This document shows positions 25,070-52,680 of a DNA stretch of 64,000 bases, piece after piece; position 1 is the first letter of the stretch; each line of letters opens with the position of its first letter. Source of the DNA: Bolinopsis microptera (taxonomy: Eukaryota > Ctenophora > Tentaculata > Lobata > Bolinopsidae); the NCBI RefSeq assembly GCF_026151205.1, contig NC_087074.1, forward strand, positions 3,720,001 to 3,784,000, read 5' to 3'. Below the pieces are notes generated by a model. That model made no database searches and was not told the origin of the DNA. It saw only the letters and a program-made list of their open reading frames with translations. The position numbers and the translations under genes were made by a program.

Positions 25070-27373
25070 GTTCTGGCTTCTGATATATTTAATTTTTTTA
25101 TATATGTAGTTTATTAGGACTGATAAAGTGATAATAATCAAATATAACAACAAAAATATTTTTACCTTAAATATCAAATGTGACAGAACTGTTTTATTAT
25201 TGTTTGATAATCTCATATCAGCGGACTTCGGAGACTTAAAAACATTTGACAGAATCTAAAAGATTTTTAATCGACTGTATGATCCCTGTAATTCTGTTAC
25301 GGTCTCACCGCGTGGAATTGATCAGTGATTAGGGAGTCCCTAATAACATTGAATTTGATGTCCCTGGAACTGGACAGTGGACACCTTATAGATAAGATAA
25401 AACTATATGGAAAAGACAATAAACTCATTTCGATTACTGAGCACAGATTTGTGAAATATTAAAGTCTCTAAAAATATTGTCTCTAAAAATATTATTTGTC
25501 TCTAAAAATATTATTTTTCACCATAAGTTAAACAAAAAAATAATGGTATTAACTAATGGTAAAGAAGAAGACTTTTTTAAGCTCCCCGACGCGATACACG
25601 AGGCTAGGATAGCGTTAGCCCTTAAAATTTATGTGCAGCCGGCATCAATCGAATGATTTGAACGCTGTTCAGTGTTCTAGATATGAGAGCGTGCAAAAGA
25701 AAACCCTGACCCTAACCCTTAAATAGTGTACTGATCTACAACTTACAAGAAAGAACCGAGGTGATCTTTTTGTGTCACGTGTACCCATCGCCTTGCAACC
25801 GCCTTTGACCTGATGCCTCTTACGAGGTTCTTAGATACTGATAAGCTGGTAACTAATGCACGATTAAGCTCGTGAGTTGGGACAGCCTAATGATTTGTGA
25901 GAGAATCAGGTCTCATCTGTTATAGGTTTGAATATTCATCGTTACTAGAAAATTTGGGCCAGCCAATTGGTCAGTGAAAGAATCAGGTCTTATCTCCTAG
26001 TACAGCAGATCTGAATATATGAATATTTATTTTTACCAGAAAACCCGGCCGAAGAGCTTTGCAATACATGGCATGCGCCATGCAATAAAAAAGGTGAGGG
26101 ATCGTGAATTGTGCAGATAAAGATCATTTAAAGATTTAATGATATCATGCTCATAAAATACTTACTGTTACAGCCCAACAGGCAACATACTTAGTCCTAA
26201 CATAATGACCCCACTCGTGAATTTTGAAATTCTGACTGGACCAAATTTTATTACCGAGAGTTTATCAATATCATCTTCGCAAAAAACCATATTTTGTGAA
26301 TCTGTATACTATAATCTTATAGCTGGTTAACTGGACGAAAGAACAAACAGCGCAGTTAGGATAATAATGCAAGTAAGGAAGCGCACAAGAGATTCTATGT
26401 GAGTTTTAATTGTTTCCTATTTAACCGTGTCATTCTATTCACTAATTCATGAGCCGTTTTTTTAATAATTAGAAGAATGGGAATTTCTAAGGTAGATGGA
26501 TGTGAGTGTAATCATTTGTCTCGTCTCCGTCTGCGAAAAGATGATGGGTCTGACGAATAATCATAAAAATACTGAAAGTCAAAAAGATATCATTAAACTT
26601 ATTGTAAACTAAAACTTTTGTAAATTTCTGACTAACAGTTTGATAAATACAATTTTCCTACCCAAATTTGATTTTCCTCAGGTATCCCTCAAAACGACCA
26701 CTGCAGAGTTACGTCCTGAAAATCCTCTCAGTCCTCACGTTCCTTTATCATTCTACTTGGAGTTAATCGAGATCTTCCTATGGCTAACGACTATAAGTAT
26801 ACGAACAGGCTCACTTGCAGTACCTCGAATAAATACGCTAAGCTCGCAGCCCGGCTAATACTCGTGGTGCCCTAAACGGTGCTTTTTGTTCTTCTCTTTT
26901 CAACCTGATGAATATAAAGATGACTTAGTCTATTTGTAATCCCGTATGAGATTAACAAGGACAGACAGGCTTGGTAAGTTTAACAAGAGTTAGAGTGACT
27001 GCAATAGTTATAGTATGTATTTTCTTAGCACAATGATCCTAGTGGCAAGTTACTGAGGGCATGGTGAAACTGAATCGTTTTACCATTGAATTCAGAATCT
27101 AGTCTCTTACTTTGTGGCTTCTATGGAAATCTATGAATAAACGGACAATGAACTATTGGAGCTGAGAAAGGAGTGACAGTTACATTACGATAACTCCATA
27201 GTAATTACAGAAGTACCTCGCTATAAGAGTATAAGTAAAACGCGCCTCGCTATAACGAGGGCCGAAAAAGGAAATACAGTGGCCACAGTCGACTCTACCC
27301 AATTTTGGGGTTTGGCGAAAACAATCACAGAATCTTAGGTATTACTCAAATATAATATACTTGTTTGTTGCAG
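25070..27373. other. Intergenic DNA, no gene supported
   Basis: Contains a diverged pair of roughly 85 bp repeats (gagaatcaggtctcatct at 25900 and aatcaggtcttatctcc at 25980) and short inverted pieces near 27215-27320 related to MITE ends. An acceptor-like TTCCTCAG at 26674-26681 is followed by an open stretch to 26858. That could be an upstream exon of the gene ending at 27553, but nothing proves it. Confidence 0.5.
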
Positions 27374-27553: not shown

Positions 27554-27734
27554 GGAATACTCCTAGCTAAATACTTTATCGGACCCTATTTGGGCGGACA
27601 TTAATTGAACGCTGGAGGCCCTAACGTTTATTTTAATGTCCGTTCAAATAAAGTCCGTTCATTTAAGGTCCGTCCAAGTTAAAGTCCGTTGAATTTAAAA
27701 AATATTCTATCTTTTCGTCCAGAATATGACAACT

Positions 27735-28165
27735 ATGATAACTTTATTGTGCCGTAAGTTAACAACGGAACGGTTCTCCTTGGTCTGCCGGAGGCACAGA
27801 AAACTTTAATGGTATATGATGTTTTCAAGAGCCACTTGGCGGAAAAGTCAACGAAATTATGGTACTCAACTACATAGTTCATGAGCTAGTCCCCGCCAAC
27901 ATGATAAACTTGTTCCAGCCTCTAGATATTACGGTAAATCGTGTTGCCAAGGACATAGTCCGACGTTGTTATAGTTCATATTACTCAGGGGAGGTAATGA
28001 AACAGTGCTAGGAAAGCTCCACGTGATGTTAAGGTTAACCTTAAGTTGTCTTAGATAAAAACCACTTCACGCCGAATGGCTTGTAAAAGTTTGCACTGAA
28101 ATGCAGGACCGGGGTAGTTTGATGAAAAAAGGTTTCCATAAAGCTAGAAATCACTGATGCTTTAA
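27735..28165 (+). pseudogene. Pogo-type DDE transposase fragment (left arm)
   Basis: Conceptual translation with frame breaks shows LLGLPEAQKTLMVYDVFKSH, then a VPANMINLFQPLDITVNRVA stretch, then PLHAEWLVKV and KKGFHKARNH. The NLFQPLD motif, followed by the HAxW helix and a GF.KA tail, is typical of DDE_1 transposases near and after the second catalytic aspartate. The N-terminal half and first DDE residues are absent. The mirror copy is at 29160-28745. Confidence 0.7.
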
Positions 28166-28196
28166 GCATGGACTATTTAGTATGGTAACACGACTC

Positions 28197-28256
28197 CTGT
28201 CCGACAACGACATCTGTCCGACAGCGACATCTGTCCGACAGCGACATCTGTCCGAC
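28197..28256. repeat. 17-bp direct repeat, three copies
   Basis: GACATCTGTCCGACAGC repeats, the first unit with ACAAC instead of ACAGC. It sits in the unpaired middle of the inverted-repeat element. It is followed at about 28310-28400 by two ~67 bp imperfect repeats sharing CATTTCCAATT.GAGA.ATGAT. Confidence 0.82.
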
Positions 28257-28744
28257 TCAGGATATCAGAAAAAAACGACATTTTTCCGAAATTGTGATCT
28301 GATTTCAATACGACACATTTCCAATTAGAGACATGATCTGAACTGCTACTTGCTAATTTGTATACGTAACATTTCCAATTTGAGATATGATCTGAGCCAT
28401 AGTTTACTACCATAGTTTATTTTCATTTGATGTCGATAAATTGGACAATAGTTTAAATGTTATATAAATGTTACCTTATCGGACCTTATTTGGACGGACA
28501 TTACATGAACGGACATAATTATGAACGGACATTAATATGAACGCTCGAAGGCATTCAAAACCATCAAAAATCCGAACTTTTTTCAATTTTTTTACGTTTT
28601 TTTAATTTCAGCAAATGATTTTTAAATCCATTTTTTATACAGTAAGTAAGAAAAGGAGTCATTAAGCAGTAAAAATGTTGAAATATGTGTACATGATCAG
28701 TGTCTAATGTCACATATCATCTTTATCAAATGGGTTTTCGTGCA

Positions 28745-29160
28745 TGAAATAGTCCATGCTTCTGTGATTTCTAGCTTTATGGAAACCTTTTTTTTAATCA
28801 AAGTACCCCGGTCCTGCATTTCAGTGTTAACTTTTACAAGCCATTCGGCGTGAATCTGTTTTATCTTAGACAATTTTAGGTTAACCTTAACATCACGTGG
28901 AGCTTTCCTAGCACTGTTTCATTACCTCCCCTCAGTAATATGAACTATAATAACGTCGGACAATGTCCTTGGCGACACGATTTACCGTAATATCTAGAGG
29001 CTGGAACAAGTTTGTCATTTTGTTGACTTTTTCCGCCAAGTGACCCTTGATAACATCATATACTAATAAAGTTTTCTGTGCCTCCGGCAGACCAAAGAGA
29101 ACCTTTCCGTCGTTAACTTACGGCACAATAAAGTTCTCATAGTTGTATTGTCATATTCTG
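28745..29160 (-). pseudogene. Pogo-type DDE transposase fragment (right arm, inverted)
   Basis: Reverse-complement copy of the fragment at 27735-28165, with the same motif order on the minus strand and independent small indels. It lies inside the subelement 28474-29317, which has its own two terminal repeats. Confidence 0.68.
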
Positions 29161-29339
29161 GACAAAAAGTTCGAAATGGAAAAATTTTTGAAAAAATTTC
29201 AACGGACTTTAACTTGGACGGACATTAATTGAACGGACTTTATTTGAACGGACATTAAGATGAACGCTAGGGCCTCCAGCGTTCAAGTAATGTCCGTCCA
29301 AATAAGGTCCGATAAGGTATTTAAATATATTCAATACAA

Positions 29340-31050: not shown

Positions 31051-31052
31051 TT

Positions 31053-32428
31053 GTTAACTTGCTCCTATCTCTCGGTTAGAGATAACACTTGTTAACTTGC
31101 TCCTATCTCTCGGTTATAGATAACACTTGTTAACTTGCTCCTATCTCTCGGTTAGAGATAACACTTGTTAACTTGCTCCTATCTCTCGGTTAGAGACAGG
31201 GACAAAAGGATTTCGCGGCGATTTTGGCCAAAAATCGCGATACCGCGAATTACATTTCGCGGTATATTAAACTATACATCAAATTTGTCGCAAATAATGG
31301 GAAAAATCGCGATTCCGTACATGCCGCGATTTCCTTTTGTCCCTGGTTAGAGATAACACTTGTTAATTTGCTAATATCTCTCGGTTAGAGATAACACTTG
31401 TTAACTTGCTCCTATCTCTCGGTTAGAGATAACACTTGTTAACTTGCTCCTATCTCTCGGTTAGAGATAACACTTGTTAACTTGCTCCTATCTCTCGGTT
31501 AGAGATAACACTTGTTAACTTGCTCCTATCTCTCGGTTAGAGATAACACTTGTTAACTTGCTCCTATCTCTCGGTTAGAGATAACACTTGTTAACTTGCT
31601 CCTATCTCTCGGTTAGAGATAACACTTGTTAACTTGCTCCTATCTCTCGGTTAGAGATAACACTTGTTAACTTGCTCCTATCTCTCGGTTAGAGATAACA
31701 CTTGTTAACTTGCTCCTATCTCTCGGTTAGAGATAACACTTGTTAACTTGCTCCTATCTCTCGGTCAGAGATAACACTTGTTAACTTGCTCCTATCTCTC
31801 GGTTAGAGATAACACTTGTTAACTTGCTCCTATCTCTCGGTTAGAGATAACACTTGTTAACTTGCTCCTATCTCTCGGTTAGAGATAACACTTGTTAACT
31901 TGCTCCTATCTCTCGGTTAGAGATAACACTTGTTAACTTGCTCCTATCTCTCGGTTAGAGATAACACTTGTTAACTTGCTCCTATCTCTCGGTTAGAGAT
32001 AACACTTGTTAACTTGCTCCTATCTCTCGGTTAGAGATAACACTTGTTAACTTGCTCCTATCTCTCGGTTAGAGATAACACTTGTTAACTTGCTGATATC
32101 TCTCGGTTAGAGATAACACTTGTTAACTTGCTCCTATCTCTCGGTTAGAGATAACACTTGTTAACTTGCTCCTATCTCTGGGTTAGAGATAACACTTGTT
32201 AACTTGCTCCTATCTCTCGGTTAGAGATAACACTTGTTAACTTGCTCCTATCTCTGGGTTAGAGATAACACTTGTTAACTTGCTCCTATCTCTCGGTTAG
32301 AGATAACACTTGTTAACTTGCTCCTATCTCTCGGTTAGAGATAACACTTGTTAACTTGCTAATATCTCTCGGTTAGAGATAACACTTGTTAACTTGCTCC
32401 TATCTCTCGGTTAGAGATAACACTTGAG
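31053..32428. repeat. 38-bp minisatellite, about 32 near-identical copies
   Basis: The unit is GTTAACTTGCTCCTATCTCT followed by CGGTTAGAGATAACACTT. Within each unit TATCTCT-cggtt-AGAGATA is a perfect 7 bp stem with a 5 base loop, and GTTAAC is a further palindrome. Variation is low (occasional CTCC to CTAA or CTGA, CGG to GGG). The array is interrupted once by a 149 bp MITE. It ends directly against the first recognised exon of the ABCG gene, so it fills the preceding intron or upstream region. Confidence 0.95.
31197..31345. mobile_element. hAT-type MITE with 8-bp target duplication
   Basis: The 149 bp element begins CAGGGACAAAAGGA and ends with the reverse complement TCCTTTTGTCCCTG. GTTAGAGA occurs directly before (31189-31196) and directly after (31346-31353). 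Removing the element and one GTTAGAGA restores a normal 38-bp minisatellite unit. CAGGG termini and an 8 bp duplication are the hallmarks of the hAT superfamily. The interior holds repeated TCGCG/CGCGA motifs and no transposase. Confidence 0.93.
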
Positions 32429-40180: not shown

Positions 40181-40477
40181 GCAATTTCTGGGTCAGGGTC
40201 AGGGTCAGGGTCAGGGTCCTGGGTCAGGGGTCAGGGTCAGGGTCAGGGTCAGGGTCAGGGTCCTGGGTCAGGGTCAGGGTCCTGGGTCAGGGTCCTGGTC
40301 AGGGTCAGGGTCAGGGTCAGGGTCAGGGTCAGAGTCAGGGTCAGGGTCAGGGTCAGGGTCAGGGTCAGGGTCAGGGTCAGGGTCAGGGTCAGGGTCAGGG
40401 TCAGGGTCAGGGTCAGGGTCAGGGTCAGGGTCAGGGTCAGGGTCAGGGTCAGGGCCGGGTCAGGGTCAGGGTCAGGG
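40181..40477. repeat. GGGTCA hexamer array (variant telomere-like repeat)
   Basis: About 48 units of GGGTCA on the plus strand, with a few CCTGGGTCA and one GGGCCGGGTCA variant. Variants are concentrated in the left part and the array becomes regular rightwards. It differs from TTAGGG by one base and passes directly into TTAGGG repeats. The Gly-Ser frame across it is a product of the repeat. Confidence 0.96.
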
Positions 40478-40570
40478 TTAGGGTTAGGGTTAGGGTTAGG
40501 GTTAGGGTTAGGGTTAGGGTTAGGGTTAGGGTTAGGGTTAGGGTTAGGGTTAGGGTTAGGGTTAGGGTTA
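40478..40570 (+). repeat. Canonical TTAGGG telomere repeat, 15 perfect units
   Basis: Ninety bases of perfect TTAGGG plus TTA, G-rich strand on plus. In a real telomere the G-rich strand points 5' to 3' towards the chromosome end, so this would face right. It ends abruptly at aaattgtatt. TTAGGG is the usual animal telomere repeat. Confidence 0.95.
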
Positions 40571-40587
40571 AAATTGTATTAAATTAT

Positions 40588-40735
40588 ATTGTCGGGGGGT
40601 CAATTGTCGGGGGGCCAATTGTCGGGGGGTCAATTTTCGGGGGGTCAATTGTCGGGGAGTCAATTGTCGGGGGTCAATTGTCGGGGGACAGGGGGTCAAT
40701 TGTCGGGGGTCAATTGTCGGGGGTCAATTGTCGCA
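40588..40735. repeat. G-rich ~15-bp minisatellite
   Basis: Nine to ten units of TTGTCGGGGGGTCAA with G-run length changes (GGGGG to GGGGGG) and one GGACAGGGGGTC insertion. It follows the TTAGGG array after 18 bases of AT-rich DNA. Runs of five to six G make it a candidate G-quadruplex former. Confidence 0.92.
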
Positions 40736-41250
40736 CACCCATCAGGTTATAGTAAGTAGTTAAGAAGGTGCTTGGCCGGAAATTTCATTAATTTTCAGGA
40801 AAAATTCTCGAGGGCTAGGTCCCGAAAAATATTTTCGGCTCATAATGATCAGGGTAGCATGAATGAACTTTTTTAAATGCCATTGCCCCCCCCCCTGCCT
40901 CACCGTCAGGAGAGAAATTAACATGGTAGGAATTTTAAATTTTTGTAAATGTAAAGAGTAGTTATGAAGGTCAAATTTAGGGTAAATAAATATTGCCAAG
41001 TGAGCTGATATAGTGAAAAATCCGTTCAATAATTTCGGTGAATTATACGAATTACACAATCTTCATTAACTGAAAAGCTGTAAAATAGACGTATAAATTG
41101 TAAACTAATTATTTTAAAGAATTGAAATAATGGCTTGGTGTGTTTAAACAAGTACCGTTCTCTTTGGAAGTCTTTCCTGCAACAATTCTAATAAACTTCT
41201 TTTGTAATTTGAACGTAAATTGTAAATGTACACGAACCTAAAGCATCAAC

Positions 41251-44200
41251 CTTGTACTCCTTTATAATGACGGGTCGCGGTTCCTTCTTCACGTTTTGTT
41301 TCTTATTCTTCTTTTTTGTACGAGCCTGAGAGAATTGTTATCAGCTTGTTATCATGTTCTGGGTCGGCCTTTTGGGATAATATTGACCCCAATTTATGGT
41401 GTGTCTGAGAAAGGGGTTTTGTTGAACACCATCAAACGACAAACATACTGGAATCGAACTTTTTATTGAGGTGAGCCTTGAGGTAATGTGAAGCTACAGC
41501 CCTCTTGAATGGAATAGTAAAAGACGAAGGTTCGCTTCCAGGTTTATTTAATTTAGTGGAATAACCCAGCGTTGTGAATTATACTTAGTCTTTATCATAA
41601 CTCTTCTGTAATTTTAATAAAAATCTAATTATAAATACTGCTCTGCTTGGGTTTCTATACTATTATTTTTAAGAATTAGACGATCTCAGTTTATCTTATT
41701 AATTGAAACCAATTAATGATAACTGATTAAATTAATCGAATAAAAGTTGTCCAAAAAGTTACCAAGCCTGTTCACCAGCCCTTCACTCTATCAGCTCCAG
41801 AAATCAGTTCCGGAAGTGTTAATTGAGAGTTTAATTTAGGTATCCAATTTACGCCAATAATTAATCCGATTGATGGCCAATTACGATAATGAATTTTTTG
41901 CAGTATATAAACAGAGCTGCTGTCCATTTCTTCAGTCAAGGTTGAAGTTTCATGATCATGCTGATCATGATGACTTGGATTTGATGCGAGGGGGATTCTC
42001 CTCCACGGCTTATTCGCCCTCCGGGTCTTAACGTGACAATTGTACTAAGTTTTATTGCAAACTATGTTGATAAATCCCATAAGTCCCATATTTCATTCGA
42101 AATTTTGCATTTAAGGAAGGAAACTTTAGCAGTCCTCGACATACTATTGAAACTTTATAAGATTACTTTCTCTTGTTGACTTGTCATTCAGTTACCAGTC
42201 ATATCTGATAAGTATCATAACAATTTTGCTGATAAATAATATTCTCCAGTTTAGCTCAAGGAAAAGTTAGCAAAGATGCCAGGACTCGACGAGACCAACA
42301 ACGAAAGCTACAGATACCTGAGAAGTGTCGGAAACAACTGGCAGTACAATGTCGAGGACCTTCACCCCAAGATGTTGGAACGTCTGTACAAGAGGTTCGA
42401 CACTTTCGATCTCGACACTGACGGCAAGATGAGCATGGACGAGATTATGTACTGGCCCGACAGAATGAGACAGCTGGTCAACGCTTCTGACGAACAGATT
42501 GAGAAGATGAGAGCTGCCTGCGACACCTTCTTCTTCCACAAAGGAGTAAACCGAGACACCGGTCTCGCACGAGAGGACTGGGTTGAAGCTAACAGAGTCT
42601 TCGCTGAAGCCGAGAGAGAAAGGGAACGACGTGGAGAAGGATCTTTGATTGCCCTCCTCTCCAACTCTTACTACGATGTCCTGGATGATAGTGGTGATGG
42701 TACTGTCGATGTCGAAGAGCTCAAAACAATGATGAAAGCCTTTGATGTACCCCAGGAGGCTGCCTACACCTTCTTCGAGAAGGGTGATACTGACAAGACC
42801 GGAAAGCTGGAGCGACCTGAACTGGTCCATCTCTTCAGAAAGTTCTGGATGGAGCCATACGATCCCCAGTGGGATGGTGTCTACGCTTACAAATACTAGA
42901 TCGTATTCACTTGGAACTTGATGATATCTTACCTGGAATGGACTTGAATTCGTGATCTGTAAACGATCTTGGAAATTTCCTTTTTTTGTTTTCGATATTT
43001 TGTTTTCTAAAGTTTAAACTCACATCAAACTTACCTTGTATTTTAGTATTGAAATGTTTTGTAATTAATTATAATCATCACTTAACTTGGGTATGATAAT
43101 GAATGTTAGACTTATACTTTACTATCATCTCAAATGTTACATTTGAATTGAAAACAAAAATACGTTGTTTGATTGTCTTATCACTCTTAATCGACCAAGC
43201 AAGTCAAAGATAAAATAAAATTAACATAGTTGGTCCGTACCCTCGATTTTCGCCGTCCGTATGCAAGAGTACTTTTGAAACTTCTGACGTGAATTTGTCC
43301 ACTATTTTCACACGATTTAAACGAGTTTTTAAAAAGTTTAAAATGTTTAATTTATCATCAAGATAAAGTTAAAGATATTAAGCGGAATCAATGGACATCT
43401 CATTATCAGATTCACTGTCTTCAGCAGTAGTGTCTATGTGTTCTGTCTTGTCAACAATTTTAAAGCTTAACGTACCCTAAATTCAATTTTTCGTACCGTG
43501 AGTACCCTGCTGTTTTTACGTACCCTATAGTACGGACCAACTATGAAAATTAAGCTTAATCTTCCATTTCACTTTTAACATTAGTCGCAACTAAGAAGCA
43601 TTGGCTCCCCCCCCCCCCCTCCCAAGCATTTAACCTTCTCGCATATTCTGATATTAAAATTGTGTAAAATTAATTCACAATCTCTTTCCGTTTAATTTTA
43701 TTGAAAATTACAATTTCTTTTGACGAAATTAACAACCAAATGTTATTTAGCTAAAGTGACCAGGCCAACAAGATGCCAGGACTCGACGAGACCAACAACG
43801 AAAGCTACAAGTACTGAAGAAGCGTGGGTAACACCTGGCAGTACAATGTCGAGGACCTTCACCCCAAGATGTTGTCCCGACTCTACAAGAGGTTTGACAC
43901 TTTCGATCTGGACAGTGACGAGAGCTCGAGAGGATGGAGATGGACAAAGTCCTGTACTGGCCCGACAGAATGAGACAGCTGGTCAACGCTACTGATGAGC
44001 AGGTTGAGAAGATGAGACATGCATGCAAGAATTTCTTCTGGCATAAAGGAGTAGACCTAGAACACGGACTCGCACGAGAGGACTGGGTTGAGGCTAACAG
44101 AGTCTTCGCTGAAGCGGAGAGAGAAAGGGAACGACGTGGAGAAGGATCTTTGATTGCCCTCCTCTCCAACTCTTACTACGATGTCCTGGATGATGATGGT

Positions 44201-47200
44201 GATGGTACTGTCGATGTCGATGAGCTGAAGACCATGATGAAAGCTTTTGATGTACCCCAGGAGGCTGCCTACACCTTCTTCGAGAAAGCTGATACTGACA
44301 AGAGTGGAAAGCTGGAGCGAAATGAGCTGGTCCATCTCTTCAGAAAGTTCTGGATGGAACCATACGATCCTCAGTGGGACGGTGTTTATGCTTTCAAATA
44401 TTAAATAGTATCTGTTTAAAACTCGATGAAATCTTTTCCGGCAGTCAATTTTATATATTTTTCTGTAGGAGAAGATTTTAAAATTTTTCTTTTGGATTTT
44501 GTTAAAGTTTAAAACTCAAAGCAGACGATTTAATCATAATGATTGGTAACGTGTATTCGATTTAGAATGAATTTTGGATTTTGTGATGAATACCATCACA
44601 CGCATATTCGAACACCCTTGTTTACTTTTTCTTATCACACCCCTACAAAGCAAACTTAGAAGATTGAAACAACAGAAATAATCTTTAAAATTACTTTTTG
44701 ATATCAAAAATCTGCTATATATAATGCACTATGATATGAATTATACTTGTGATGGAGTAAATCTGTAAATCACTACAAGAATGTTTTGAGCTCACCCTTT
44801 TGTTGGCCTCGAACGCTTTCTGCATCTGGTTGAACCAAACCCGACCAAAGTAGTGGGGATCAGTGTAGAGGGTCGTGCAGTCCTTCCCATCCTCCCTCAC
44901 ATTCTTGAAGACCTGTCAAATATTAGTCAGTTTAGGCAAATGTACAATTATATGTTAAACGGTTAAACGATCTAAATGCATTGACTGTTCTGTGGAATCA
45001 TACTTTAATATCGATTATAAGCCAATTATATAAGCCAATTATATAAGCCAATTGCAAAGGCAACTACCTACAACTGCATTAAAGTGTAGAACATTGAGTT
45101 TCGAATCATGACGTCAATTTGTTGATGCACCCCCATACATTATATTCATCGGTAAAATCATATGAATTCCAGTTTTGAGCTGCAGAGATTCAGAGAATGA
45201 CTACACTTCAAGCGGTTTAACAGTATTGGTATCGAGCATTTAACTTATGAGATTCAATATTGCATAGTCGAATTATCCCTAAAATGGCCATTAAAGTTGA
45301 AAGGATTCGCAGAACTGGGCATTATAATGTGAGTTTAAATGCAGCTCGAGCACTAAGCTAACCGTCCCGGTTCATTAATTAATTAGTAAAACTGCTAATT
45401 ACAGCGCAAATCACCATCATTTACTGTTAACATCTCGCTAAATCGACTACTAGTATCTACTACTGTTACATTGTGACCTCATACAGCAAGCCTTACATCC
45501 AAAAACAGTAATTACTGAACCTGTCAGAATGACATTTACGAGCACTCGTAAACAGTTCCATAAATGAGGGAATTTTGAAATTGAAATAAATTATATTTTC
45601 GGTCAACGGTACTGCAGACGGGAAGAAGTATAATTAGTCCCTTATCATTACAGCAAAACTCTGGTTTACCGGGAATTTCATGGAGACGATTTTGCCAAAT
45701 TGTTTCGATAGGAAATTCCAGTAAACCAGGGTCTCAATGTAACACACAAATGGGGGCCTGGTAAATGGGGGTCTGGTTAATGGGGGCCTGGTAAATGGTG
45801 GTCTGGTAAATGGAGGCCTGGTAAATGGAGGCCTGGCAAATGGGGGCCTGGCAAATGGGGGCCTGGTAAATGGAGCCTGGTAAATAGGGGTCTGGTAAAT
45901 GTATATTAACTTACAATGAGAGCAGGAGTGAGGTCTGCAGCTGAGTGTCTCTCCTTTACACAGGGCGTCCTGTTGTCCTTTATCACCACGTTCTGGTCCA
46001 CTACTGTGTTAGGTCTGAACTTGCCCACCTCCATGTTGTGGTTGTTTAGGTCTGAACGAGGATGTGGTTACTAGGTGGTTACTAGGTGGTTACTAGGTGG
46101 TTACTAGGTGGTTACTGGGTGGTTACTAGGTGATTACGACGTGGTAACTAGGAGGTTACTAGGAGGTTACTAGGCGATTACTAGGTGATTACGACGTGGT
46201 TACTAGGTGGTTACTGGGTGGTTTCTAGTTTATTACTAGCTGGTTACTAGTTGGTTACTAGCTGGTTACTAGGTGGTTACTAGGTGGTTACTGGGTGGTT
46301 CCTAGTTGGTTACTAGCTGGTTACTAGGTGGTAACTAGGTGGTTACTGGGTGGTTCCTAGGTGGTTACTAGCTGGTTACTAGGTGGTTACTAGGTGGTTA
46401 CTGGGTGGTTTCTAGGTGGTTACTAGCTGGTTACTAGGTGGTTACTAGCTGGTTACTAGGTGGTTACTAGCTGGTTACTAGCTGGTTACTAGGTGGTTAC
46501 TGGGTGGTTCCTAGATGGTTACTAGCTGGTTACTAGGTGGTTACTAGGTGGTTACTGGGTGGTTCCTAGGTGGTTACTAGCTGGTTACTAGGTGGTTACT
46601 AGGTGGTTACTAGCTGGTTACTAGCTGGTTACTAGGTGGTTACTAGCTGGTTACTAGCTGGTTACTAGGTAGTTACTACCGTGTTATGTTATTGCTCTAT
46701 TAGTTGGAGCCACTTTTGCCACTCTTGACAATTCTGAACTTTACCACTTGCCTCAGTGGGTCACAACGCTCAGATTGGGCGTAAAATGTTTACTGTTTTC
46801 GAACTAAAAATAGAAACCTGAAAACTTGTCAGAATATATATTATATAATATAGTATAGATAGTTTACAGTGTATGAATAGCTGACAGTGTCGTCTCAGAA
46901 TAAGACAAAACGTATACTCTTAATTTCTTCCAGTGACACACGAGTCCAATTTAGACGTTTTGATTGAGAGCTTGAAATGACTTAAGCTACCTCATGAGCC
47001 CACGGCTTCAAACATTGTCACGAGAAACTTACTAAATACAGGACATTCAATCATACTACTTTGTAAAATATAGAGTAGAGAATGGAGCACACTTTGTTTA
47101 AAGACACTGTGTTTGTTGAGCCAGTGAAGCCTTACACATTACCTGATTTATAAGATAACGACATGATGTAAGTCATAGGAACTAGAGTTGTACTGGGGAG

Positions 47201-51493: not shown

Positions 51494-52680
51494 CTATATA
51501 AAGTATAAACAACACTATAAACAACACTATAAACAACACTATAAACAACACTATAAACAACACTATAGACAACACTATAAACAACACTATAGACAACACT
51601 ATAGACAACACTATAGACAACACTATAAACAACACTATAGACAACACTATAAACAACACTATAAACAACACTATAGACAACACTATAAACAACACTATAA
51701 ACAACACTATAAACAACACTATAAACAACACTATAAACAACACTATAGACAACACTATAAACAACACTATAAACAACACTATAAACAACACTATAAACAA
51801 CACTATAAACAACACTATAAACAACACTATAGACAACACTATAGACAACACTATAGACAACACTATAGACAACACTATAAACAACACTATAAACAACACT
51901 ATAAACAACACTATAGACAACACTATAGACAACAATATAGACAACACTATAAACAACACTATAAACAACACTATAAACAACACTATAAACAACACTATAA
52001 ACAACACTATAAACAACACTATAGACAACACTATAAACAACACTATAAACAACACTATAAACAACACTATAGACAACACTATAAACAACACTATAAACAA
52101 CACTATAAACAACACTATAGACAACACTATAAACAACACTATAAACAACACTATAAACAACACTATAAACAACACTATAAACAACAATATAAACAACACT
52201 ATAGACAACACTATAAACAACACTATAGACAACACTATAAACAACACTATGCACAACACTATAAACAACACTATAAACAACACTATAAACTACACTATAA
52301 ACTACACTATAAACAACACTATAAACAACACTATAGACAACACTATAAACAACACTATAGACAACACTATAAACAACACTATAAACAACACTATAGACAA
52401 CACTATAGACAACACTATAAACAACACTATAGACAACACTATAGACAACACTATAAACAACACTATAGACAACACTATAGACAACACTATAGACAACACT
52501 GTAGACAACACTACAAACAACACTATAGACAACACTATAAACAACACTATAAACAACACTATAGACAACACTATAAACAACACTATAAACAACACTATAA
52601 ACAACACTATAAACAACACTATAGACAACACTATAAACAACACTATAAACAACACTATAAACAACACTATAGACAACACT
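51494..52680. repeat. 12-bp minisatellite ACAACACTATA(A/G), about 98 copies
   Basis: Units ACAACACTATAA and ACAACACTATAG in irregular order, with rare CAATATA, CTACACT, CTATGC and CTGTAG variants. Because 12 is a multiple of 3 and the unit lacks stops in several frames, it creates long false open frames on both strands (QHYK/QHYR on plus, VVYS and IVLF on minus). It ends in a short CT repeat. Confidence 0.97.

What the first reader, a model, noticed from the sequence alone, without database searches (positions are those of the whole stretch)
40181..40735. Telomere-like boundary: variant GGGTCA, then perfect TTAGGG, facing right
The order subtelomeric LINE tail, degenerate hexamers, regular GGGTCA and then 15 perfect TTAGGG copies is how a chromosome end looks from the inside. 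Non-telomeric sequence then starts at once. This is either an ancient end-to-end fusion, an insertion of telomeric DNA, or a misjoin of a chromosome end to another contig.
Basis: partly seen in the sequence, partly recalled or inferred. Interest (0 to 1): 0.72.

Follow-up and report, generated by a model that had tools for sequence, protein, structure and literature searches.

The report
Telomere-like repeats inside jumping gene
What looks like a buried chromosome end in a comb-jelly genome is a truncated copy of a small mobile element, found in about two hundred recognisable copies, whose core is a telomere-like repeat; it is not evidence of a chromosome fusion.

Summary
The arrays are real: 40 GGGTCA and 16 GGGTTA units in 40190-40570, then non-telomeric DNA. 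They are not a chromosome end or fusion scar. The window starts 3.72 Mb into a 21-Mb contig of a 265-Mb ctenophore assembly, probably Bolinopsis. The sequence that "starts at once" is the right arm of a dispersed TIR element: left arm (ACAATTGACCCCCCG)n, hexamer core (108-2498 bp), right arm (GGGTCAATTGTCGGG)n. All 8 complete copies read, 7 independent, carry perfect 8- or 9-bp target-site duplications. Exact termini occur 192 and 191 times. On C1-C5, 38 of 54 mixed-array loci carry an exact landmark in the right order, against 0 of 54 strand-flipped. Block order is not polar (88 against 101 junctions). The window copy lacks its left arm. Two other dispersed families also hold TTAGGG arrays: of 16 GGGTTA-array loci tallied on C1, 7, 5 and 3 fall in the three families and 1 in a microsatellite. 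It resembles foldback elements such as Tetris; the telomere-like core is unusual. Transposase searches did not complete.

The parts
40190..40474 (+). Variant (GGGTCA)n part of the core, irregular (GGGTCCT interruptions) to about 40337, then mostly regular
40475..40570 (+). Canonical telomere-type block, 16 perfect GGGTTA units
40571..40598 (+). Inner spacer of the right arm; exact 26-mer ATTGTATTAAATTATATTGTCGGGGG at 40573-40598, one of 102 places in the genome that match the spacer pattern
   Evidence: C3:3760573-3760598
40588..40733 (+). Right arm: tandem 15-mers GGGTCA+ATTGTCGGG, inverted relative to the left arm of complete copies
40721..40740 (+). Right terminus GGGTCAATTGTCGCACACCC, one substitution from GGGTCAATTGTCGCCCACCC (191 exact copies elsewhere)
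40189..40190 (.). Left break: the left arm is missing and the core abuts an A/T-rich sequence; no left terminus (up to 4 substitutions) in the + orientation in the window

Best explanation
The feature is the core and right arm of a truncated, nonautonomous TIR transposon of foldback type. Shown: complete copies begin GGTACCGCGACAATTG, end CAATTGTCGCCCACCC (single changes in some), have arms built of tandem 15-bp units in opposite orientation, a hexamer core of very variable length, and perfect 8- or 9-bp target-site duplications. Inferred: a transposase supplied in trans by an unidentified autonomous relative (Mutator or Merlin type by duplication length) binds the arm units and pastes the element in, and the core grows and shrinks by slippage or unequal exchange. 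The GGGTCA core probably started in place, since the right-arm unit is exactly GGGTCA+ATTGTCGGG and the core is in phase with it; GGGTTA is then one C-to-T change away. Capture of real telomeric DNA remains possible for the GGGTTA blocks.
For: Termini: 192 exact left and 191 exact right copies on both strands, reversed-pattern controls 0. Of 100 left and 90 right ends entered in the pairing script (C1 to C6:17.1 Mb), 57 left ends pair head-to-tail within 6 kb, median 625 bp, with 0 opposite-strand pairs and 1 wrong-order pair. Target-site duplications: 8 of 8 complete copies read, 7 of them independent because L011 and L016 share flanks. Association: 38 of 54 mixed-array loci on C1-C5 have an exact landmark in the right order within 3 kb, 0 of 54 strand-flipped, random positions 0.23%. 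Five of the 16 loci without a landmark were read: L050 is a complete copy with mutated ends and four (L067-L070) share an inner left-arm segment with the family. Fixed core boundaries: left junction 74 places, right spacer 102 places. The three longest of the 57 pairs (2345-3034 bp) are longer mainly by more core. Fold-back, one copy tested: L050 z = -7.27, 0 of 200 shuffles as stable. Phase of core and arm unit.
Against: No transposase or autonomous copy was seen; the Pfam searches that would look for one did not complete. The window copy has no left arm and hence no duplication of its own. One family-1 copy read (L047) lacks its right end and has no duplication. Of the 100 left ends entered, 43 have no exact right end within 6 kb (mutated, truncated or longer; most not read). 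The self-derived origin of the core does not explain why GGGTTA arrays also sit in two other dispersed families. Eleven of the 16 mixed-array loci without a landmark were not read, and one of them (C5:4729816) lies beside a family-2 arm by coordinates.
Confidence: 0.93

Rival explanations
1. The core is captured telomeric DNA: a foldback element inserted in or near a telomere, or a broken element was healed by telomerase, and then spread with TTAGGG inside it; TCAGGG is a derived variant. (This differs from the best explanation only in the origin of the core.)
For: GGGTTA is, from recall, the animal telomere unit. Runs of 72, 18 and 16 perfect units occur. (GGGTTA)4 has 4310 places against 932 for (GGGTRA)4, whose reversed control gave 44. 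GGGTTA arrays sit in three different dispersed families.
Against: GGGTCA, not GGGTTA, dominates (15394 against 4310 places; 319 and 318 units in a row in L052 and L053). The core is in phase with the arm unit, which contains GGGTCA. Block order is not polar. Places are overlapping registers, so a few long arrays weigh heavily: most of the 100 listed (GGGTRA)4 places are one array on C3.
Confidence: 0.35
2. Ancient end-to-end chromosome fusion.
For: Telomere-type repeats deep inside a chromosome-sized contig.
Against: No facing array in the window: the only reverse-strand run of 2 or more units is a single 12-base pair at 25707-25718, 14 kb away. The same structure with target-site duplications occurs at several loci, and its junctions lie in both orientations.
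Confidence: 0.01
3. Assembly misjoin of a chromosome end to another contig at 40570.
Against: The sequence across 40570 (core, spacer, 15-mers, terminus) is the same ordered structure as in other copies; no N in the window. The left edge at 40189 is less certain, since no copy read shares it.
Confidence: 0.03
4. Telomere insertion of the ALT type, driven by nuclear receptors that bind TCAGGG/GGGTCA repeats, as proposed for human ALT cells.
For: TCAGGG variant repeats are bound by NR2C/F receptors at ALT telomeres, and a targeted telomere insertion route has been proposed (PMC6410037, passages).
Against: The arrays sit inside elements with arms and 8- or 9-bp duplications. From recall, ctenophore nuclear receptors are reported to lack the DNA-binding domain; the zf-C4 search here did not complete (tried once).
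Confidence: 0.02

Closest known systems
Tetris, foldback transposon of Drosophila virilis (PMC4079207; passages seen)
   Same: Apparently nonautonomous, without conserved ORFs; TIRs containing tandem repeats; variable non-coding middle; 8-9 bp duplications in its three complete copies; shares the ends of its TIRs with a smaller element (DAIBAM); its repeats seed longer arrays.
   Different: Tetris units are about 220 bp and in the arms; here the arm unit is 15 bp and the long array is a telomere-like hexamer in the middle. No sequence comparison was made.
Mutator (MULE) superfamily, to which most foldbacks seem to belong (statement in PMC4079207)
   Same: Duplication length (8-9 bp) and long arms are compatible.
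   Different: No MULE transposase could be linked; the search did not complete.
Merlin superfamily (recalled, not from a call)
   Same: 8-9 bp duplications and GG...CC ends fit what I recall of Merlin.
   Different: No Merlin transposase could be linked; the search did not complete.
MoTeR telomeric retrotransposons of Magnaporthe (PMC7367193; passages seen)
   Same: A mobile element with built-in variant telomere-like repeats, TTCGGG(TTTGGG)n.
   Different: MoTeR is a retrotransposon inserted in telomeres; this is a TIR element scattered along chromosome interiors.
Interstitial telomeric sequences inserted at double-strand breaks in mammals (PMC7215372; start of abstract in the listings)
   Same: Short TTAGGG arrays at internal sites without fusion.
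   Different: Those are insertions made during break repair; here the array travels inside a repeated element with its own ends.

Membership tests
Foldback-type TIR transposon | Terminal inverted repeats built of tandem subunits | tested here: met
   one copy (L050) folded, z = -7.27
Foldback-type TIR transposon | Target-site duplication flanking complete copies | tested here: met
   8 of 8 complete copies read, perfect: 8 bp in 6 (5 independent), 9 bp in 2; L047, right end missing, has none
Foldback-type TIR transposon | Dispersed multi-copy, both orientations | tested here: met
   192 (100 forward, 92 reverse) and 191 (93, 98) exact ends
Foldback-type TIR transposon | Mobilised by a transposase of a related autonomous element | not tested
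   Pfam searches not answered (for example)
Mutator (MULE) | MULE transposase in an autonomous relative with the same ends | not tested
   PF10551 search not answered
Mutator (MULE) | Duplication of about 8-11 bp (range recalled) | tested here: inconclusive
   8 and 9 bp seen; also compatible with Merlin, hAT and P, by recall
Merlin | IS1016-type transposase in an autonomous relative | not tested
   PF12762 search not answered
Chromosome end or fusion-type interstitial telomere | At a contig end, or head-to-head arrays | tested here: not met
   about 3.76 Mb into a 21.3-Mb contig; no facing array in the window
Chromosome end or fusion-type interstitial telomere | Consistent variant-inside, canonical-outside polarity | tested here: not met
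   88 against 101 junction places

The most novel reading that the evidence does not exclude
In this ctenophore several unrelated dispersed element families have independently acquired TTAGGG-type cores because the core does something for the element: for example, it draws telomere-binding proteins or telomerase to a transposition intermediate, protects hairpin ends, or lets elements exchange with real telomeres. Mobile elements would then be the main source of interstitial telomere-type DNA here and a possible reservoir for telomere repair.
Probability: 0.12. Interest if true: 0.78.

Novelty: new variant of a known kind. Interest (0 to 1): 0.5.

Why it matters
Interstitial TTAGGG is often read as a scar of chromosome fusion, and ctenophore chromosomes are used as evidence on the deepest animal branch (PMC10232365, abstract start and passages). 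Here such arrays are carried by transposons, so FISH or sequence hits of this kind should not be scored as fusions, and telomere finders that treat TTAGGG as an end will be misled. It also adds a foldback-type element whose core is a variable, up to kilobase-scale, G-rich telomere-like array: a natural system for asking how such arrays grow and whether they affect replication or telomeres.

Tried and rejected
Rejected: fusion, misjoin at the right edge, telomere polarity and ALT-type insertion, for the reasons given under the rivals. Also rejected: the idea that the GGGTCA array is the 3' tail of the LINE-like sequence to the left (which I did not test as such). The array has its own fixed junctions with element arms at many loci.

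Led nowhere: Rfam on the window, 0 matches at gathering score. Chromosome ends: no run of 4 or more units in the first 10 kb of C1-C16; with two mismatches allowed, one 18-base match in L040; no GGGTTA, GGGTCA or TAACCC in the last 200 bp of C1-C13. So the real telomere sequence could not be tested. Paper searches (9 of 10 used) showed no described element of this kind in the titles and abstract starts listed. For ctenophore papers I saw passages and one section of PMC12221973, passages of PMC11797021 ('telomer', 'transpos' and 'mite' 0 occurrences in the main text) and passages of PMC10232365 ('telomer' and 'transpos' 0). I also saw passages of PMC9071541, PMC6947457 and PMC12810828, which did not describe such an element.

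Full report
Where it is. The window is G000:C3:3720001-3784000 of a 264.65-Mb assembly in 232 contigs. Thirteen contigs of 15-26 Mb hold 97.5% of the bases (my sum of the lengths). An ORF at 42255-42899 matches the ctenophore photoproteins mnemiopsin 1 (E 2.4e-127) and berovin but is not identical to either. Bolinopsis microptera is reported with 13 chromosome-scale scaffolds holding 97.23% of its assembly (PMC10232365, passages); Mnemiopsis leidyi also has 13 chromosomes, in 247.97 Mb (PMC11797021, abstract).

The observation. The array is there: 40 GGGTCA, 16 GGGTTA and 4 GGGTCC in 40190-40570, with the 16 GGGTTA at 40475-40570. Base shuffles never gave a run longer than one unit of either hexamer (50 shuffles).

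What it is. (GGGTCA)4 has 6273 forward and 9121 reverse overlapping places in the genome, against 44 and 0 for the reversed pattern. Nine distinct family-1 loci were read with their flanks: L011, L016, L047, L048, L049, L050 (array hits on C1) and L051-L053 (chosen because both exact ends were present). They show one structure: GGTACCGCGACAATTGACC, then tandem ACAATTGACCCCCCG units with a segment like ATGTAATTACACTGGGGTCAATTG, then the GGGTYA core, then tandem GGGTCAATTGTCGGG units ending GTCGCCCACCC, with single changes in some copies. Eight of the nine are complete, and all eight have perfect duplications: GGTAAAAA (L011 and L016, one insertion later duplicated with its flanks), AGTTAAGG, GTTTAAATA, AAATTTGA, GTTCTAAA, GCACTAAGG and GATACATA. 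L047 lacks its right end. The three longest, 2345-3034 bp, differ mainly by core length: cores of 1980-2498 bp, against 108-407 bp in the four shorter copies measured.

Genome-wide support. Exact left ends: 192; exact right ends: 191; reversed controls 0. The tool lists only the first 100 places of each. I paired the 100 listed left ends (C1 to C6:17.1 Mb) with the 90 listed right ends up to the same point; the other 10 listed right ends (2 on C6, 8 on C7) were left out. Of the 100 left ends, 57 have a right end in order within 6 kb (median 625 bp) and 43 have none; no pair is on opposite strands and one is in the wrong order. On C1-C5, 38 of 54 loci with a TCA/TTA junction have an exact end or spacer in the right order within 3 kb, 0 of 54 when the strand is flipped, and random positions give 0.23%. 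Of the 16 misses, five were read. L050 is a complete copy with mutated ends. L067-L070 share the inner left-arm segment (CCCCATGTAATTACACTGGGGTCAATTC), an interleaved GGGTTA/GGGTCA core and a different right side; the outer left end (GGTTCCGCAACAATTTACC) was reached only in L067, L070 departs from the others on the right, and duplications were not tested. I take these as a sister subfamily. Eleven misses were not read; one of them (C5:4729816) lies beside a family-2 arm by coordinates.

The window copy. Its right side is typical: exact spacer at 40573-40598 (one of 102 places), 15-mers to 40733, terminus GTCGCACACCC to 40740 with one substitution against the common end. Its left arm is missing, and no left end lies in the + orientation in the window. 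So it is a truncated copy, and the sharp edge after TTAGGG is the inner boundary of the element's right arm. What removed the left arm is not known.

Not telomere polarity. The TCA-to-TTA junction pattern has 88 places, the TTA-to-TCA pattern 101. In L051 the 72-unit GGGTTA block comes first and in L048 the 18-unit block lies near the left; in the window the block is last. The TCA-to-TTA junction lies on all 13 large contigs, 44 places on each strand overall, though on C8 only on one strand.

Origin of the core. The right-arm unit is exactly GGGTCA plus ATTGTCGGG, and the core runs in phase into it. The simplest reading is that the core began as slippage of the first six bases of the arm unit, with GGGTTA a C-to-T variant that also expanded. 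Against this as the whole story: GGGTTA arrays occur in other families. The first 100 (GGGTTA)4 places, of 4310, fall in 16 loci, all on C1 below 17.2 Mb. Seven carry family-1 landmarks. Five lie beside or between arms of a second family with 15-bp arm unit GACTCTAGGGCGTAA: two were read (L071, which shows only the right arm, and L074) and three were placed by coordinates only. Three share the flanks of a third dispersed repeat (L073, L075, L076). One lies in a microsatellite running (GGTTGA)n-(GGGTTA)n-(GGGGTT)n (L072). So 16 of 16 are accounted for and 15 are in dispersed repeats. The rest of the genome was not tallied. I give self-derivation of the core about 60% and capture of telomeric DNA 35%.

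How it works. Shown: ends, arms, duplications, dispersal, core-length variation, and fold-back potential in the one copy tested (L050, z = -7.27). Inferred: cut-and-paste by a transposase in trans, binding of tandem arm units, and core growth by slippage or unequal exchange. The transposase could not be sought because the family searches did not complete, so Mutator versus Merlin is open.

Compared with what is known. The nearest described element that I saw is Tetris of Drosophila virilis, an apparently nonautonomous foldback with tandem repeats in its arms and 8-9 bp duplications, which its authors suggest belongs to Mutator (PMC4079207, passages). MoTeR elements carry telomere-like repeats but are telomeric retrotransposons (PMC7367193, passages). 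[quoted passage not shown] In my paper searches no listing described a TIR element with a telomere-type core in a ctenophore; that is limited to the open-licence library and to titles and abstract starts. I therefore rate it a new variant of a known kind.

Noticed in passing
window 28186-28408: Fragment like the right side of the sister subfamily (17-mer CTGTCCGACAGCGACAT in tandem), lying inside another inverted-repeat structure at about 27560-29310 (seen by eye).
   Followed up: partly
L074, L071 and the places: A second dispersed inverted-repeat family, arm unit GACTCTAGGGCGTAA (227 places for the arm 22-mer). A GGGTTA unit lies within 30 bases of an arm motif at 102 places, about 78 loci by my count of the 100 listed (one unit suffices for that pattern). 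Its duplication was not tested.
   Followed up: partly
L073, L075, L076: A third dispersed repeat with a short GGGTTA array flanked by inverted motifs of the type CAACTGAACCCAATT.
   Followed up: partly
L072 (C1:12189900-12190290): Microsatellite that passes from (GGTTGA)n through (GGGTTA)n to (GGGGTT)n, a chain of telomere-like hexamers.
   Followed up: no
window 42255-42899 and 43919-44404: Two neighbouring EF-hand ORFs; the first matches the calcium-regulated photoproteins mnemiopsin and berovin, and the second ends in a very similar sequence.
   Followed up: partly
window 31051-32426 and 51504-52680: Large minisatellites: 38-bp unit (about 28 copies in the main block) and 12-bp unit (about 98 copies).
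   Followed up: no
G000:C3:351687-352255, end of array not listed: Long (GGGTGA)n array, another telomere-like variant; context not read.
   Followed up: no
L011 and L016 (C1:2.20 Mb and 2.24 Mb): The same insertion with the same flanks twice, about 39 kb apart: a segmental duplication or an uncollapsed haplotype, with elements of 495 and 575 bp.
   Followed up: no
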